Shown in pieces: positions 1 to 6,745 of a DNA stretch of 64,000 bases. Source of the DNA: Commensalibacter intestini A911 (GTDB taxonomy: Bacteria; Pseudomonadota; Alphaproteobacteria; Acetobacterales; Acetobacteraceae); the NCBI RefSeq assembly GCF_000231445.1, contig NZ_AGFR01000007.1:1-64000 (forward strand), given 5' to 3'. How positions within the stretch are numbered: position 1 is the first letter of the stretch; every line of letters begins with the position of its first letter. The translations under genes and the position numbers were made by a program. Under the pieces are notes generated by a model. That model ran no database searches and was not told the origin of the DNA. It saw only the letters and a program-made list of their open reading frames with translations.

Positions 1-1996
1 GCAGTGAAATCGTGTCAGAATGTTCTGAATTTACACCAGAGAAACCTTGGATTTGTGTTGTAACACTTGTATTCGGATCAGTGCCAACGATAGACGGATC
101 ACCAATAATAGTTAACCCACCATTATCATCTCCAACCAAGTTAATAGCACCACCATTAGACGTGGTAAGCTGTGCACTGCCGCCTTGGCTTAATGTAATA
201 TTTCCTTGAATATTAGTCTTTACAGAAACGTCTAAATACCCACCATTATTAATAGTGACATTTCCTAAATTCGCGCCATCACCTGCATAAACAGAACCAT
301 CAGTTACCGTCGTATCACTGGCAACTGCGCCACTATAAATACTTTGATAACCACCACTAATAATCGTATTGCTCGCAATTGCACCTGAAAATACAAACTG
401 ACTAGCATTATTAGTAAGCGATGTATTGTAAACAACAGCACCAGATGAAACGTTTTGCTTACCTCCAGCAAAGTAATTACTATTAACACTACCACCTGAA
501 ACATTCTGAGTTCCACTAGTAATACTGGTATTTGCTACGGTTCCACCACGAATATTTTGAACCCCACCACTATTTACGCTGGTATTAACAACACTTCCTC
601 CAGCAATACTTTGAACCCCATCATTACTTACATTAGTGTTAGAAACATTTCCTCCATCAATTCTCTGATTTCCACCACTAATAATATTAGCACTAACAAC
701 TATACCACTAAAAATATGCTGCAAAGCACCACTAGTAAGACTAATATTATTAACAGTCCCTCCCCATATATTTTGAGTATTCCCTTGTGCTATTGTAACA
801 CTATTAACATTAGCACCAGATGAAACAATTTGAGTAATGCCTGATCCTAATGATATATTATTAATTACAGCACCTGAATTAATAATTTGATAACCATAAT
901 TGCCAGCATTAGCACTAAGAGTAAAATTACTTAGATTTGCACCAGACATAATTACCTGGGAAGCATTATTACCTAAAGAAGTAATTCCACTTATTGTTCC
1001 TCCATAAAGAATCTGAGCTCCACTATTAATACTTACATTAGAAACAATACCACCATAAATCACCTGAGAACCATTATTTAAAACTGTATCCGTAACAGTC
1101 CCCCCATACACGCTCTGGTTACCACTACCTATACTTGTATAAGTAACATTCCCTGCAGAAACAGCCTGGTAACCACTATCAATACGTGTACTAACGACAT
1201 TACCACCAAAAACAACTGTTTGATATCCATTTACGATACTTGTATTGGTAACACTCAGTGGATTGCTACCCGTTTCTCTAACATCTTGATAACCACTCGT
1301 AATCCTCGTATAAGAAATCATCCCACCATTAAGTTCTTGATGTCCATTAGCTATATTTGTATAAGTCACACTTCCTAATGTAACCTTCTGGTTTCCACTA
1401 CTAATATAGGTACTAACAACATTGCTGCCCCCTGCTACACTCTGATCACCACCAAAAATACTTGTATTTTGAACAAAAGCTCCAGAAGTAATATACTGTG
1501 ACCCATTAGAAATAATAGTATTATTGACAGTTCCTCCAGAAAGATTCTGACTTCCACTATTAATATTTGTATTAATCACATTACCACTAGAAACAACAGT
1601 CTGGTTTCCACTAGTAATCATGGTGCTAACAATAGTGCCCTCTGCAATGTACTGATCGCCATTCGTAATATTGGTACTTGTAACAGTTCCAACAGAAACA
1701 TACTGACTACCATTTGTGATACTTGTGATAATCATGCTACCACTAGAAACAATGCTTTGATTACCATTTGTAATAACAGTACTTATAGCAGTCCCACCAG
1801 AAACAAACTGAGTACCACTAGTAAGAATCATATTATTAGCAACGTCACCACTATAAACATATGCATCACCAGTGACAACTAGCCCCCTATTCATATGTAA
1901 ATTCTCATTATCCACTGTTGCTGATAAATCTGATTGTGCATTACAGTTATTTGTAACGGTTGCCCCTGAAATGATATAATTACTACTGTCGCCCAT
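1..1996 (-). CDS. AIDA-type strand-loop-strand repeat protein, Hint-protein paralogue A (3' end off window)
   Basis: About 665 residues are visible, open to the left edge, so the C-terminus is missing. The ATG at 1996 follows an AGGGGG ribosome-binding site and opens MGDSSNYIISGATVTNN. From about residue 50 to 530 the protein is a run of 17-18-residue units of the type 'xxGxQxVxxGGxVxxTxI', as in autotransporter passenger strand-loop-strand repeats (AIDA/TIGR04415 type). It then has a stretch ending in SVTTQIQGFSG. The start and the post-repeat region closely match the neighbouring protein at 2179-4787, which continues into a Hint domain, so a Hint domain is expected beyond the window. There is no hydrophobic N-terminal signal peptide. 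By family it is a surface or secreted adhesin-like protein; substrate and export route are unknown. It has its own upstream region and is not obviously cotranscribed with paralogue B, which ends in a terminator. Confidence 0.85.
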   Translation of the reverse strand, partial: MGDSSNYIISGATVTNNCNAQSDLSATVDNENLHMNRGLVVTGDAYVYSGDVANNMILTSGTQFVSGGTAISTVITNGNQSIVSSGSMIITSITNGSQYVSVGTVTSTNITNGDQYIAEGTIVSTMITSGNQTVVSSGNVINTNINSGSQNLSGGTVNNTIISNGSQYITSGAFVQNTSIFGGDQSVAGGSNVVSTYISSGNQKVTLGSVTYTNIANGHQELNGGMISYTRITSGYQDVRETGSNPLSVTNTSIVNGYQTVVFGGNVVSTRIDSGYQAVSAGNVTYTSIGSGNQSVYGGTVTDTVLNNGSQVIYGGIVSNVSINSGAQILYGGTISGITSLGNNASQVIMSGANLSNFTLSANAGNYGYQIINSGAVINNISLGSGITQIVSSGANVNSVTIAQGNTQNIWGGTVNNISLTSGALQHIFSGIVVSANIISGGNQRIDGGNVSNTNVSNDGVQSIAGGSVVNTSVNSGGVQNIRGGTVANTSITSGTQNVSGGSVNSNYFAGGKQNVSSGAVVYNTSLTNNASQFVFSGAIASNTIISGGYQSIYSGAVASDTTVTDGSVYAGDGANLGNVTINNGGYLDVSVKTNIQGNITLSQGGSAQLTTSNGGAINLVGDDNGGLTIIGDPSIVGTDPNTSVTTQIQGFSGVNSEHSDTISL

Positions 1997-2061
1997 ACTA
2001 TGCCCCCTATAAACGCTTTATATTGTTAATTTTTTATATAAATACCGATATCGTTAATTTA

Positions 2062-2091
2062 TATTTTATTAAAGTATACTTTAATAAAATA
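2062..2091. repeat. perfect 30-bp palindrome upstream of paralogue A
   Basis: Bases 2062-2091 read identically on both strands, centred between 2076 and 2077 (core TTAAAGTATACTTTAA). The palindrome lies 66-95 bases upstream of the ATG at 1996 and overlaps the conserved upstream block at 2076-2130. Only part of it is kept upstream of paralogue B. A dimeric regulator site or cruciform is possible; function is inferred only. Confidence 0.7.
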
Positions 2092-2130
2092 CGTTAATAA
2101 ATAAAAATATTTACATACAATTAATAATTG
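2076..2130 (-). promoter_or_regulatory. upstream block shared by both Hint/AIDA genes (copy A)
   Basis: This 55-base block aligns without gaps to 4877-4931. Shared segments include ATACTTTAATAA, ACGTTAATAAA and AATAATTG. It lies 80 bases upstream of the paralogue A start; copy B lies 90 bases upstream of its start. Conserved AT-rich non-coding sequence at matched distance suggests a common promoter or regulator site, but no clear -35/-10 pair was identified. Confidence 0.5.
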
Positions 2131-2152
2131 GCACTTTAAAACAAACAAATAA

Positions 2153-2180
2153 AAAAGCCTGTTATATGTAACAGGCTTTT
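2153..2180 (-). terminator. Rho-independent terminator of the Hint gene B
   Basis: A 12-bp stem (arms 2153-2164 and 2169-2180) with a 4-base loop has the core GCCTGTTA/TAACAGGC. On the minus strand it is followed by a T run. It overlaps the stop codon of the gene ending at 2179, so transcription of gene B should end before paralogue A. Confidence 0.85.
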
Positions 2181-3120
2181 ATTCAGTCATTATATTGATG
2201 TTAATACACGGTCTTAACCAACCAGTGTCCATTTCATCCTCAGCCTCTGTCACGAGCTCTATATATGGCCCCTCAGATAAAATCTGTAAGGATATATAAA
2301 TCACTGAATTATCAACTAAGTGCTTGCTCTTAATAGGTAATAACGCTCTACCTTTAGTCCAACGACCTGCTTTCTTTTCTTTTGCATGCCAGCCTTCAAG
2401 TTCTTCTTCCTCACGTAAAATATTAGATAACTCATTTTTATTATCCGCAAAGATCATCACTTCACCAACCAAGACCCCTAAGAAATGACGATTATCTACA
2501 AATGGACCAATCACATCACAAAGACGACTACGTCTAGAGTTAATCCATACAGACTCTACTGTTGAAGGAACCATAAACGTTACCCACTCACCAGAAACAC
2601 GCTTATTACGAATAACTTGCCCTTGATCCGTTACTAAATGAAGATCTGAATCATTCACAAGTTGAACATGACGGCCTTTATAATCTACTTTCAATCTTTG
2701 AGCGCGTTTATTGAGTTTATTATATAACGGTTCAACAACATCTTGAGCAACCACAAGTGGCGCCGCTGCATCTACCTCCCAATCCTTGGCTGATTGGAAT
2801 GACGTCTCAATAACCTTTTGATCACGGTTAAACGCATGACGATTGCCTGTATCTAGATAACTTTCCGTGCGAACACCATCCGCAATAATCACCGCATGAT
2901 CTTGTGTTTCAAGATGATAATATTCATAAGAAGTAATCGAATAATCGTAGTAAATCGTAGAGCCATTCACCAACATCCGTGCAGGAATAAACTTATCTTC
3001 AAAGAATAAACAATGTTCTGCTGTTACTAATAAATCTTTATAAGGCACCCCTTTCGCAATCGCATCTTTCACAATACGAACAGGATACCCAGCCATATCA
3101 TCAGGAAGAGATGTATTCAC
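2179..3120 (-). CDS. C-terminal fragment of Hint-domain protein B (after frameshift)
   Basis: This 313-residue reading frame continues the protein of 3117-4787 after a one-base frameshift. The first codons shown here are probably not a real start: read without interruption, the frame gives VGKKYCRVNTSLPDD, joining the previous fragment at about 3144. It completes a Hint_2 (Hedgehog/intein-like) domain: LLVTAEHCLFF carries the block B TxxH signature (T33, H36), followed by ARMLVNG, YYHLETQDHAVIIADG and AESYLDTGNR-like text (here TESYLDTGNR), a family hallmark. The last 150 or so residues are a trailing domain I do not recognise. Hint domains catalyse autocatalytic peptide-bond rearrangement. 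Whether this split version is made as one protein depends on the frameshift being an error, phase-variable or bypassed. Confidence 0.75.
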   Translation of the reverse strand: MNTSLPDDMAGYPVRIVKDAIAKGVPYKDLLVTAEHCLFFEDKFIPARMLVNGSTIYYDYSITSYEYYHLETQDHAVIIADGVRTESYLDTGNRHAFNRDQKVIETSFQSAKDWEVDAAAPLVVAQDVVEPLYNKLNKRAQRLKVDYKGRHVQLVNDSDLHLVTDQGQVIRNKRVSGEWVTFMVPSTVESVWINSRRSRLCDVIGPFVDNRHFLGVLVGEVMIFADNKNELSNILREEEELEGWHAKEKKAGRWTKGRALLPIKSKHLVDNSVIYISLQILSEGPYIELVTEAEDEMDTGWLRPCININIMTE

Positions 3121-4787
3121 ACGACAATATTTCTTACCAACCCAGTGACTTCACGTTCAACATATTTCTTTTGAACCCAATCATACGTCGTTACAAAATC
3201 ACCCACTTGAAGTGCTTCAATATTCTTCACACCCAACTTCGTTTTAATTTGCGTCCCAGATAAGAAACAAACTGTGAGAATTAAACCAGACACTCCATCC
3301 GTAGACTCTTTAATAGAATATCCTGTTTGTTTAATCCCAAGAATATTTAATGTTAGAGCAAAACCTGTATCCATTGTCAGCGTAATATGATTTTCATCTG
3401 AGTAAGTTACACTACTTAATGTGCCAGTCTTCAGACCATCATATTCCAATAAAATACCATCGGAATGGCTTGCATCTGTACCTGCAAAACCTTGAATTTG
3501 TGTTGTAACACTTGCATTATTACCTTCCCAGTTTATTAATGGTGGCTCACCAATAATCGTTAACCCACCATTCTCGTCTCCAACCAAATTAACAACACCG
3601 CCATTAGACGTGGTAATCAATGCACTGCCACCAGGATTTAAGGTTACCTCCCCTTGAATGTTAGCACCAAGTCCTACGTCTAACCAACCACCATTATTAA
3701 TTGTTACGTTACTAACTGTTGCACCATCATCTGCATAAATCGCACCAGATGAGATAATTTGAGTGCCAGAACCACTTATAATTGCGCCACTCAAACTTGC
3801 ACCAGACATAATCACTTGAGAAGCATTTGTACCTAAATAAGTTATACCACTTATTTCACCCCCTGAGATTATCTGAGCTCCGCTAGTTATAGCCGTATCA
3901 TACACAATACCACTTAGAATATATTGATTTCCATCATTTACAAACGTACTATAAACGGAACCTCCGTAAACATATTGATTTGCATAATTAGTAAGACTAG
4001 TATTAGAAACTACTCCACTATAAATTCTCTGAAGTCCTGTATTTATAAATGTATCATAAACCTCACCTCCTGAAATATACTGACTCGTATAGTTACTAAG
4101 GTGCGTATTCGAAACTACTCCAGCAGAAATAAAGTGTCGTCCATTTATTATAGTGTTATTAAAGGCACTGCCAGCGTCAACATACTGATCCCCACTCTGA
4201 ATATATGTATCAATTACTACTCCACCAAGAACCCTCTGAAATCCATCGAAGATACTTGTATCAGAAGCTACTCCGCCATAAACTCCTTGACATCCATCTT
4301 TCTGAAACTTTGTATGAACAACTGTGCCTCCTGAAATGTACTGTGTACCAATATTAAAACTAGTATTTACAACAGATCCATTCCAGACCTCTTGTTGACC
4401 ACTATACTGTCCCCCATCAAAATTAATATTTGACGCAATTCCACTCACAACCCTTTGAAATGCTCCACTGCCTAACAAAGAAATATTTGTAGCAGTTCCA
4501 CCATAAAGATACTGAATACCATCTGTAATCGTAGCGCTATTAACATAGCCACCTTCTCGAACATACATTGCAGCAGATGAAATATTTAAAGAATTTACAG
4601 ACATACCACTAGTAATATATACATTACTCAGATTAGTAACAACTACACCTCTATTTATATACAAAGTATCATCTCCAGGAGGACAACTAATTATCGTCTC
4701 CTCAGATGAGGATGACTGGATTTCACTTCCAATACTATTATTCGTAACAGATGCTCCTGAAATGATATGATTACTACTGTTGCTCAC
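3117..4787 (-). CDS. N-terminal fragment of AIDA-repeat Hint-domain protein B (frameshifted)
   Basis: This fragment has 556 residues and starts with GTG at 4787, six bases after a strong AAAGGAG site. It opens MSNSSNHIISGASVTNN, then has about 17-18-residue strand-loop-strand repeats from roughly residue 60 to 350 (units such as NQYVYGGSVYSTFVNDG). A linker ending SVTTQIQGFAG follows. A Hint domain begins at C507 (CFLSGTQIKT), the expected nucleophile. The frame then leaves the Hint domain at about 3144 and stops at TGA after NIVV. One extra T after the ACT codon, or a -1 shift, would restore the family sequence into the frame at 2179-3120, giving about 869 residues. No N-terminal signal peptide is visible. 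A small 5' hairpin (4809-4829) precedes the ribosome-binding site. Confidence 0.8.
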   Translation of the reverse strand: MSNSSNHIISGASVTNNSIGSEIQSSSSEETIISCPPGDDTLYINRGVVVTNLSNVYITSGMSVNSLNISSAAMYVREGGYVNSATITDGIQYLYGGTATNISLLGSGAFQRVVSGIASNINFDGGQYSGQQEVWNGSVVNTSFNIGTQYISGGTVVHTKFQKDGCQGVYGGVASDTSIFDGFQRVLGGVVIDTYIQSGDQYVDAGSAFNNTIINGRHFISAGVVSNTHLSNYTSQYISGGEVYDTFINTGLQRIYSGVVSNTSLTNYANQYVYGGSVYSTFVNDGNQYILSGIVYDTAITSGAQIISGGEISGITYLGTNASQVIMSGASLSGAIISGSGTQIISSGAIYADDGATVSNVTINNGGWLDVGLGANIQGEVTLNPGGSALITTSNGGVVNLVGDENGGLTIIGEPPLINWEGNNASVTTQIQGFAGTDASHSDGILLEYDGLKTGTLSSVTYSDENHITLTMDTGFALTLNILGIKQTGYSIKESTDGVSGLILTVCFLSGTQIKTKLGVKNIEALQVGDFVTTYDWVQKKYVEREVTGLVRNIVV

Positions 4788-4876: not shown

Positions 4877-4931
4877 ATACTTTAATAATGAACGTTAATA
4901 AAACAAAATATATACTGATACCTAATAATTG
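4877..4931 (-). promoter_or_regulatory. upstream block shared by both Hint/AIDA genes (copy B)
   Basis: Gap-free 55-base counterpart of 2076-2130, lying 90 bases before the GTG start at 4787. The match of non-coding AT-rich sequence at similar spacing suggests shared control of the two paralogues, or recent duplication that included the promoter. Confidence 0.5.
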
Positions 4932-5185: not shown

Positions 5186-6745
5186 ATGATGTATTACAGC
5201 CGCAAGAAACTAGCCCTGGTTATTATTACCTGTTTTATTGGGCTATTATTATGTTTACCGAATTTTATGTCTTCTCCCTCGCCAAAAATTCCTTGGCGCC
5301 AAGTCCATTTAGGATTGGATTTACGGGGTGGATCTTACTTGTTAATGCAAATTGATTTAAATGCATTAACCAAAAATCGTTTACAAACCCTCAGTGATAA
5401 TATCCGCCAAACCTTGATCTCGAAAGATCTCGGATATAAAGATATTCACAGCTCTGACAAAGACCATAATATCAGCTTTACTTTACGCAGCCCTTCTGAA
5501 AAAGACGCTGTATTAAAAGTATTACGTGCAATGCCTAAAGCCGTTATTAATGAGTTTAGCGTGAGTGATGGCCCAAATGATCAAATTACTCTGACTCTTT
5601 CAGAAGCTGCCATGCAAAAACGGGGTAGCGATGCCATTGCACAATCTATTGAGATTGTTCGACGTCGTATTGATGCGACAGGGGCTGTTGATCCTTCAAT
5701 CACTCGTCAAGGTGAAGATCGCATTGTTGTTCAACTCCCTGGCGTTGACGATCCAGATCGTATTAAAAAGCTATTGGGCACCACTGCAAAAATGACGTTT
5801 CATCTGTTAGATGACAGTGCAACCAACCCAGATTTTCCTCCTCCTGGCGTAACTTTTATGCCAATGATGGAAGATCCAACCAGAAAACTTCCTATTCGTG
5901 ATCATGTTGAAGTCGACGGTGCTGAGCTCACTAATGCTAGTGCGGGTATGGATCAACAAAGCGGCGAATATGCGGTGAACTTCCAGTTTGATACTGCTGG
6001 CGCTCAAGCTTTTGCCAATGTAACCAGAACAAATATTGGTAAACCTTTTGCCATTGTTTTGGATAACCAAGTCATTACAGCACCGGTGATTAGAGGCGTT
6101 ATTCCTGGAGGAAGCGGACAAATCACCGGCGGCTTTACCGTACAAAAGGCAACAGATCTTGCTTTGATGTTACGCTCTGGTGCTTTACCTGCACCATTAA
6201 AAATCGTCGAGGAACGTACGATTGGTGCTTCATTGGGTGAAGATGCAATCCGTGCCGGCGCAATCAGCCTTGGCGTTGGTTTTGTTTTCGTAATTATCTT
6301 CATGCTTGTTTTCTATGGTCGTTTTGGTTTTTATGCAGATATTGCCCTTTTTGCAAACCTTATTTTAATGACTGCCATTTTATCTTTGTTCGAAGCAACT
6401 CTTACGCTTCCTGGTATGGCTGGGATGTTGTTAACATTAGGTATGGCCGTTGATGCAAATATCTTGATAAACGAGCGTATTCGAGAAGAAGTCCGTAACG
6501 GACGCACACCTTTGGATGCATTACAAGCAGGATTTAACAGAGCATTAAGCACGATTGTTGATAGTAACGTTGCTGCATTTTTATCTCACGTTATGCTGTT
6601 TGTCTTTGGTACAGGCCCTGTGCGTGGATTTGCTTTGACTATTACGATTGGTATCGTAACCACACTCTTTACGACTTTATGTTTGTCTTGGATGTTGATT
6701 GTCCGCTGGTATGCGGTTACTCGCCCCAAAGAACTACCAATTTGA
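5186..6745 (+). CDS. secD: protein translocase subunit SecD
   Basis: 519 residues, a usual SecD length. SecD acts with SecF in the inner membrane and uses the proton gradient to pull Sec substrates into the periplasm. The N-terminal membrane segment lies at about residues 9-27, the signature LGLDLRGG at 42-49, then the large periplasmic domain (IVVQLPGVDDPDRIKKLLG), and five C-terminal membrane helices from about residue 355 with GMAVDANILINERIREE. Two adjacent ATG codons (5186, 5189) could start; an AAGGA lies 16 bases before the first, which is rather far. secF follows 10 bases downstream. yajC, the common upstream partner, is absent. Confident call. Confidence 0.97.
   Translation: MMYYSRKKLALVIITCFIGLLLCLPNFMSSPSPKIPWRQVHLGLDLRGGSYLLMQIDLNALTKNRLQTLSDNIRQTLISKDLGYKDIHSSDKDHNISFTLRSPSEKDAVLKVLRAMPKAVINEFSVSDGPNDQITLTLSEAAMQKRGSDAIAQSIEIVRRRIDATGAVDPSITRQGEDRIVVQLPGVDDPDRIKKLLGTTAKMTFHLLDDSATNPDFPPPGVTFMPMMEDPTRKLPIRDHVEVDGAELTNASAGMDQQSGEYAVNFQFDTAGAQAFANVTRTNIGKPFAIVLDNQVITAPVIRGVIPGGSGQITGGFTVQKATDLALMLRSGALPAPLKIVEERTIGASLGEDAIRAGAISLGVGFVFVIIFMLVFYGRFGFYADIALFANLILMTAILSLFEATLTLPGMAGMLLTLGMAVDANILINERIREEVRNGRTPLDALQAGFNRALSTIVDSNVAAFLSHVMLFVFGTGPVRGFALTITIGIVTTLFTTLCLSWMLIVRWYAVTRPKELPI

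What the first reader, a model, noticed from the sequence alone, without database searches (positions are those of the whole stretch)
1..4787. Tandem AIDA-repeat/Hint proteins duplicated with their control region
Two adjacent minus-strand genes share their first 17 or so residues, 17-18-residue strand-loop-strand repeats, and the block before the Hint domain. Both are preceded at similar distance by a 55-base AT-rich block (2076-2130, 4877-4931). The pairing of AIDA-type repeats, normally autotransporter passengers and heptosylation targets, with a self-processing Hint domain is unusual. Conservation of non-coding sequence suggests shared control, not just duplication.
Basis: partly seen in the sequence, partly recalled or inferred. 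Interest (0 to 1): 0.7.

Follow-up and report, generated by a model that had tools for sequence, protein, structure and literature searches.

The report
Adhesin-repeat proteins with intein-like ends
This acetic acid bacterium carries about two dozen related surface-type proteins that end in a domain resembling self-cleaving inteins instead of the usual outer-membrane anchor, and many carry adhesin repeats that a sugar-adding enzyme of the same genome probably decorates, which suggests a second way to build sugar-coated adhesins.

Summary
The two tandem genes are real, but the window starts at a contig end, so copy A is cut before any Hint domain, and copy B's Hint domain is split between two frames (3117-4787, 2179-3120). 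They belong to a paralogous family: this 2.45-Mb Commensalibacter genome has 22 visible Hint_2 loci plus copy A; 13 of these 23 carry AIDA-type repeats. Behind Hint lies a ~200-residue C-terminal domain (CTD) without a Pfam name. The pairing is usual in this family: of 120 Acetobacteraceae genomes, 33 have the repeats and all 33 have Hint_2. An Aah/TibC heptosyltransferase is in 31, of which 29 have the repeats; it keeps TibC's catalytic base and iron cysteines and lies directly before a Hint frame in 9 of 43 regions. 18 of those 31 genomes, this one included, lack a PF03797 barrel; all 31 have a marker of a type I secretion/glycosyltransferase operon. Best reading: heptosylated beta-helix adhesins, exported without a Sec signal, probably by type I secretion, and cut at the Hint cysteine. 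The 55-base block is non-random but was found only at A and B; it looks like a kept promoter region. Nothing biochemical is shown.

The parts
2..1996 (-). copy A: AIDA-type repeat passenger, 665 aa visible, runs off the contig before any Hint domain
   Evidence: ORF; TIGR04415 101 bits, 11 stretches; window = start of contig C20
3117..4787 (-). copy B, first frame: AIDA-type repeat passenger (556 aa) and the first part of the Hint domain
   Evidence: matches solved Ag43b and TibA passengers
2179..3120 (-). copy B, second frame (313 aa): rest of Hint_2 and the C-terminal domain
   Evidence: Hint 67.5 bits
3180..3272 (-). Hint_2 profile positions 1-31, with the N-terminal Cys
2848..3144 (-). Hint_2 profile positions 39-146, with the TxxH motif
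2230..2868 (-). C-terminal domain (CTD), no Pfam family; AlphaFold2 gives a beta-sandwich
2..290 (-). block before the Hint domain in copy A (approximate limits)
3274..3740 (-). block before the Hint domain in copy B (approximate limits)
2076..2130 (.). 55-base AT-rich block before copy A
4877..4931 (.). 55-base AT-rich block before copy B; a promoter-like -35/-10 pair (4898-4871) overlaps its start-proximal end
   Evidence: promoter-like sites in the region are not more frequent than in shuffles: 14 against 15.0
2153..2180 (-). terminator-like hairpin just after copy B, before copy A
   Evidence: 1 found, 1.2 expected by shuffles; z -5.4
5186..6745 (+). secD-like gene (name recalled), marker of the syntenic site; not part of the system

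Best explanation
A and B are two members of a large family of secreted surface proteins built as [beta-helical passenger]-[Hint_2]-[CTD]. SHOWN by sequence: 13 of 23 loci of this genome have AIDA/TibA-type repeats; the Hint domain keeps the N-terminal Cys and the TxxH motif but has Thr-Glu where, by my reading, inteins have the terminal His-Asn; the CTD is shared among paralogues; no own member has a signal-peptide-like stretch at its first candidate start; the genome encodes an Aah/TibC heptosyltransferase and a type I secretion operon with glycosyltransferases but no PF03797 barrel. INFERRED: the repeats are heptosylated in the cytosol; the chain leaves through the type I exporter, with the C-terminal part as signal or folding block; the Hint domain then forms a thioester at its Cys and cuts the chain there, so that the sugar-coated beta-helix is freed from the Hint-CTD cassette (or handed to a nucleophile at the surface). 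Member B, as assembled, has a broken Hint frame and is probably not processed.
Against: In this genome the enzyme gene is beside a polyketide synthase and an acyl-AMP ligase, not beside a Hint gene, and 31 of 43 enzyme regions have no Hint frame in the fetched stretch. Hint_2 occurs in 65 genomes without the enzyme, so heptosylation cannot be general for Hint_2 proteins. One repeat protein next to an enzyme gene (L162, 1920 aa) has no Hint. Two enzyme genomes lack the repeats. The type I link rests on co-occurrence and one adjacency; the ABC protein scores below the curated cut-offs of the type I models; relatedness of genomes is not corrected for. The CTD resembles no known secretion signal that I know of. 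The signal-peptide test was a simple hydropathy scan. No cleavage, glycosylation or secretion was measured.
Confidence: 0.55

Rival explanations
1. Barrel-less autotransporter debris: the family is a set of decaying passengers that lost their beta-barrel; Hint and CTD are remnants without function, and the tandem pair is drifting.
For: B is frame-broken in Hint; C18:241645 and C15:90317 have their CTD in pieces in more than one frame, and two more loci (C18:22371, C20:236940) have repeats in other frames upstream; a CTD-only remnant exists (L203:5931-6596); only 2 of 9 genus genomes have the gene at this site.
Against: 17 of the 21 other own loci have a whole Hint domain and a nearly whole CTD in one frame; the three Hint residues are kept in 29 to 31 of 31 members; the Hint-CTD architecture is shared with Acetobacter and Gluconobacter.
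Confidence: 0.15
2. Polymorphic-toxin-like proteins: the Hint domain is a pretoxin HINT that releases the C-terminal domain as an effector in competition, as proposed for some MafB proteins.
For: Hint domains of Neisseria MafB stand before a C-terminal toxic domain (passages of PMC4524018); a weak PT-HINT match exists in a relative (E 0.022, below cut-off).
Against: The CTD is shared, not polymorphic: a profile built from the window's CTD and 18 relatives outside this genome matched all 10 own candidates that were scored (window, 8 other loci and one orphan). It is a predicted beta-sandwich with no significant structural match, toxin or other. MafB Hint domains are described as type A, whereas these seem to lack the terminal His-Asn.
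Confidence: 0.07
3. The Hint domain does not cut but acts as a folded stop or assembly module: the CTD, a beta-sandwich, holds the protein in the envelope or in polysaccharide, and the protein works uncut.
Confidence: 0.18

Closest known systems
AIDA-I / TibA / Ag43 self-associating autotransporters with Aah/TibC heptosyltransferases
   Same: strand-loop-strand beta-helix passenger, heptosyltransferase of the same family with conserved catalytic and iron-finger residues, enzyme gene directly before the passenger gene in 9 of 43 regions (that aah and tibC lie so in E. coli is recalled)
   Different: no signal peptide by hydropathy, no barrel by Pfam in copy B and none in the genome by PF03797; a Hint domain and CTD stand in the barrel's place
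Bacterial intein-like (BIL) domains, B-type
   Same: Hint fold, N-terminal Cys and TxxH kept, C-terminal His-Asn absent by eye, inside variable proteins (definition from passages of PMC7765530)
   Different: Pfam Hint_2 subfamily with a shared ~200-residue CTD behind it; activity not tested
Hedgehog-type Hint proteins
   Same: N-terminal passenger, Hint without C-terminal splice residues, then a further C-terminal region (hedgehog side from passages of PMC7765530, and recall)
MafB / polymorphic toxins with PT-HINT
   Same: large secreted-type protein with a Hint domain towards the C-terminus
   Different: shared CTD instead of variable toxin tips; Hint seemingly not of the type A said of MafB

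Membership tests
Hint_2 (PF13403) | profile match over the curated cut-off | tested here: met
   copy B second frame 67.5 bits against 28.4; first frame 25.1, below; copy A not testable, contig end
Hint_2 (PF13403) | N-terminal Cys and TxxH block | tested here: met
   Cys 30/31, Thr 29/31, His 31/31 in the aligned members, copy B not among them; copy B itself shows CFLSGT and TAEH by eye, in separate frames
B-type bacterial intein-like domain | intein motifs kept except the C-terminal one | tested here: inconclusive
   Thr-Glu at the end of the domain in 28/31 and 30/31; that these columns are the intein His-Asn position is read by eye only
B-type bacterial intein-like domain | self-cleavage at the N-terminal end | not testable with these tools
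   needs expression
Classical (type Va) autotransporter such as AIDA-I/TibA | AIDA-type repeat passenger | tested here: met
   TIGR04415, Ag43b/TibA structures
Classical (type Va) autotransporter such as AIDA-I/TibA | Sec signal peptide | tested here: not met
   maximum hydropathy near the N-terminus: A 0.72, B 0.44; three controls 2.1-3.2 (a simple scan, no trained predictor)
Classical (type Va) autotransporter such as AIDA-I/TibA | C-terminal beta-barrel | tested here: not met
   none by Pfam in B; genome has 0 PF03797 matches; other barrel families not searched genome-wide; the end of A is not visible
Substrate of a BAHT heptosyltransferase | enzyme in the genome with intact active site | tested here: met
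Substrate of a BAHT heptosyltransferase | heptose on the repeats | not testable with these tools
   needs mass spectrometry
Type I secretion substrate | no N-terminal signal peptide and a type I system in the genome | tested here: met
   (HlyD over cut-off, ABC protein below); operon marker in 78 of 96 Hint genomes
Type I secretion substrate | C-terminal signal recognised by that ABC/HlyD pair | not testable with these tools
   needs deletion and secretion assay
Polymorphic toxin with PT-HINT | variable C-terminal toxin domain | tested here: not met
   CTD profile made without the other own members matched 10 of 10 own candidates scored (29 found); (profile made from the members themselves) 20 of 21 other loci match at least in part, the 21st ends at a contig end
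Hedgehog-type sterol transfer | sterol-recognition region and sterol-activating residue | not tested
   CTD has no significant sequence or fold relative; the residue was not mapped

The most novel reading that the evidence does not exclude
A bacterial counterpart of Hedgehog logic: the Hint domain does not merely cut but transfers the sugar-coated beta-helix, through its thioester, to a nucleophile presented by the CTD beta-sandwich (a glycan or lipid of the envelope), giving a covalently surface-anchored, heptosylated adhesin without any autotransporter barrel. Two dozen variable passengers would share one anchoring cassette.
Probability: 0.15. Interest if true: 0.9.

Novelty: new variant of a known kind. 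Interest (0 to 1): 0.6.

Why it matters
AIDA-type repeats and their heptosyltransferases are known from autotransporters. Here the same pair recurs in a family in which 18 of 31 enzyme-encoding genomes have no PF03797 barrel, the repeats are fused to a Hint cassette, and both co-occur with a type I secretion/glycosyltransferase operon. If right, heptosylated beta-helix adhesins have a second export and maturation route, and a genus known (by recall) from insects carries it in many variable copies. It gives a direct test of what bacterial Hint_2 domains do: cut, or attach.

Tried and rejected
Shared control element: the 55-base block was compared with 21 other paralogue upstream regions and with the syntenic site in 8 congeners; it is not a family element. 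Some of those upstream regions were taken from stop-to-stop frames whose true start is uncertain, so a distant copy could be missed. It is simplest read as the promoter region kept after an old duplication; the promoter scan itself found no excess (14 against 15.0 in shuffles), nor the terminator scan (1 against 1.2), though the hairpin folds well.

Recent duplication: rejected, B is closer to the C. papalotli copy than to A.

Hint-less repeat protein L162: its end looks by eye like the block before the Hint domain, but a profile of that block, made from 18 of 32 sequences picked by a pattern, did not find it at E 1; claim dropped.

CTD outside the family: 3 genomes of the window's genus and one of another family (19.4 bits, weak) match among 289 class genomes; at most 10 candidates per genome were scored, and how many of the 265 unlisted genomes are Acetobacteraceae is not shown.

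Literature (open-licence PMC only): searches listed no paper that by title or start of abstract treats AIDA-type repeats with Hint; some searches were swamped by unrelated hits. Papers seen: passages only of PMC4358343, PMC7765530, PMC4524018 and PMC8156966; all others in listings only.
Full report
What is there. The window is the first 64 kb of contig C20 of a 2.45-Mb, 26-contig genome. The genus is Commensalibacter: genome G124, marked 'same genus' by the tool, has a contig of the same length as C. papalotli MX01. Copy A (2-1996) runs off the contig start before any Hint residue. Copy B is two overlapping frames, 3117-4787 and 2179-3120, because the reading frame breaks inside the Hint domain. 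I left the two frames apart. Whether the break is a sequencing error, a decayed gene or a switch cannot be told from one assembly; intact copies of the domain exist in the genome and in relatives. The first 17 residues agree in 13 places (by eye), the block before the Hint domain in 61 of 95, and both carry AIDA/TibA-type repeats. Copy B's passenger matches the solved passengers of Ag43b (1.3e-9) and TibA (8.4e-8).

The 55-base block. Its match is far above shuffles (0 of 1000 reach it; 80% identity). None of 42 comparisons (21 other paralogue upstream regions against A and against B) stands out clearly; the best are reached by 2, 3 and 5 of 200 shuffles, which 42 tries would give. At the syntenic site next to the secD-like gene, 9 genus genomes were compared: only this genome (two copies) and G124 (one copy) have a Hint gene there. 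Before the G124 copy only a 44-column partial match to A's region and a 16-base identity with B's block remain. In the block before the Hint domain B is 77% identical to the G124 copy, A 69%, and A to B 64%, so the A/B split is old. A terminator-like hairpin (2153-2180, z -5.4) ends B before A's upstream region. A promoter-like pair overlaps the end of B's block (4898-4871), but such pairs are no more frequent than by chance. The modest reading is a kept promoter region.

A family, not a pair. PF13403 finds 23 matches, that is 21 whole or nearly whole domains and copy B in two pieces: 22 loci, plus copy A. All 64 TIGR04415 matches lie in 13 loci (150 of 163 candidates scored): 11 have repeats and a whole Hint domain in one frame, one is split copy B, one is truncated copy A. 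The other ten loci have other passengers or repeats too far from the model. By a CTD profile made from the members themselves, 17 of the 21 other loci have Hint and a nearly whole CTD in one frame; C18:241645 and C15:90317 have it in pieces, C13 up to its contig end, and at C18:80 the contig ends 26 residues after Hint. A profile made without those members (the window's CTD and 18 relatives outside this genome) matched all 10 own candidates scored: the window, 8 other loci and one orphan CTD. In 31 aligned members (21 own, 10 named; the split copy B left out) the Cys is kept in 30, the Thr of TxxH in 29, its His in 31, while Thr (28) and Glu (30) stand where, by my reading, inteins end in His-Asn. 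That predicts thioester formation and cutting at the N-terminal side only, as described for B-type intein-like domains (passages of PMC7765530).

Heptosyltransferase. The genome encodes one Aah/TibC-type enzyme (555 bits, cut-off 200). Aligned to TibC (4rb4, E 2.7e-114) it keeps Lys230, Arg286, Trp305 and Cys339/342/358/370, and has Asp at the place of the base Asp110 (the structure carries D110A); Thr226 is Ser, and Pro300, which sets sugar selectivity, is Ser as in AAH (positions counted by eye; roles from passages of PMC4358343). In 120 Acetobacteraceae genomes, drawn evenly by the tool, the enzyme is over cut-off in 31 (13 more have weaker matches), repeats are in 33, Hint_2 in 96, PF03797 in 59. 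Enzyme and repeats: both 29, enzyme only 2, repeats only 4, neither 85. All 33 repeat genomes and all 31 enzyme genomes have Hint_2. Enzyme and barrel: 13/18/46/43, p 0.41 (all; relatedness not corrected). This genome has no PF03797 match. I fetched 43 regions around enzyme genes, covering all 31 genomes. In 12 a Hint frame lies within the fetched stretch; in 9 the Hint or repeat-Hint frame is the next frame downstream (L132, L133, L134, L170, L172, L174, L176, L183, L187), L183 being frame-broken. Three more have a repeat frame without visible Hint directly downstream (L162, L171, L178), the last two cut by a contig or stretch end. In the others, this genome's included, there is no such neighbour downstream. 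Several stretches were short because contigs end.

Export. At the first candidate start the 21 own loci score -0.15 to 1.84 in a hydropathy scan, A 0.72 and B 0.44; three signal-bearing controls score 2.1-3.2, and some internal candidate starts reach 2.2. The genome has one HlyD over cut-off, in a gene run with an ABC protein of the type I kind (best model 503 bits, below its cut-off), a Sel1 protein, a 1016-aa and a 430-aa glycosyltransferase and a 367-aa protein. With the last as marker, 83 of 120 genomes match: with Hint 78, marker only 5, Hint only 18, neither 19, p 5e-8; all 31 enzyme genomes and all 33 repeat genomes have it; 28 of 29 genomes with 8 or more Hint matches have it. The marker match is weak or partial in some genomes. 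In G053 the heptosyltransferase gene directly follows this run of genes (L184): one region of 43, but it joins the two halves of the model. Co-occurrence is not proof.

Reading. These are probably heptosylated beta-helix adhesins, exported without Sec by a type I route, and freed from a Hint-CTD cassette by self-cleavage, or attached by it. The cassette would do for variable passengers what the barrel does for autotransporters. Shown: architecture, residues, co-occurrence, linkage. Inferred: glycosylation, export route, cleavage, function in adhesion. I found no paper on the pairing in the searches named under Tried and rejected, which cover open-licence PMC only.

Noticed in passing
L079:9502-19674 (own contig C14) and L135, L180, L186, L190, L191, L193: The heptosyltransferase gene sits beside a fatty-acyl-AMP ligase and a large polyketide synthase in 7 of 43 enzyme regions (ligase alone in L189 and L192): perhaps a lipid or polyketide tied to the same sugar pathway.
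   Followed up: partly
L080:2247-13656 (own contig C20): Type I secretion ABC and HlyD genes in one run with a Sel1 gene and two glycosyltransferase genes; the 367-aa marker is found in 83 of 120 Acetobacteraceae.
   Followed up: partly
window 3117-3150 and own loci C18:241645, C15:90317, C18:22371, C20:236940: Three of 22 visible Hint loci have Hint or CTD split over frames, and two more have repeats in other frames upstream: assembly errors, decay or switching.
   Followed up: no
starts of contigs C13, C18 and C20: Three of 26 contigs begin inside members of this family, so repeated Hint/CTD DNA probably breaks the assembly.
   Followed up: no
L203:5931-6596: A CTD without Hint, near a resolvase-like gene and genes that look (by recall) like a contact-dependent inhibition locus: probably a remnant left by rearrangement.
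   Followed up: partly
L132:1026-4505: One frame holds a Hint match and ends in a group 1 glycosyltransferase domain, beside a heptosyltransferase gene.
   Followed up: no
L162:2929-8688: A 1920-aa AIDA-repeat protein directly after a heptosyltransferase gene, without Hint; its last 500 residues match only the AIDA family in Pfam, and its genome G065 has no PF03797 match.
   Followed up: partly
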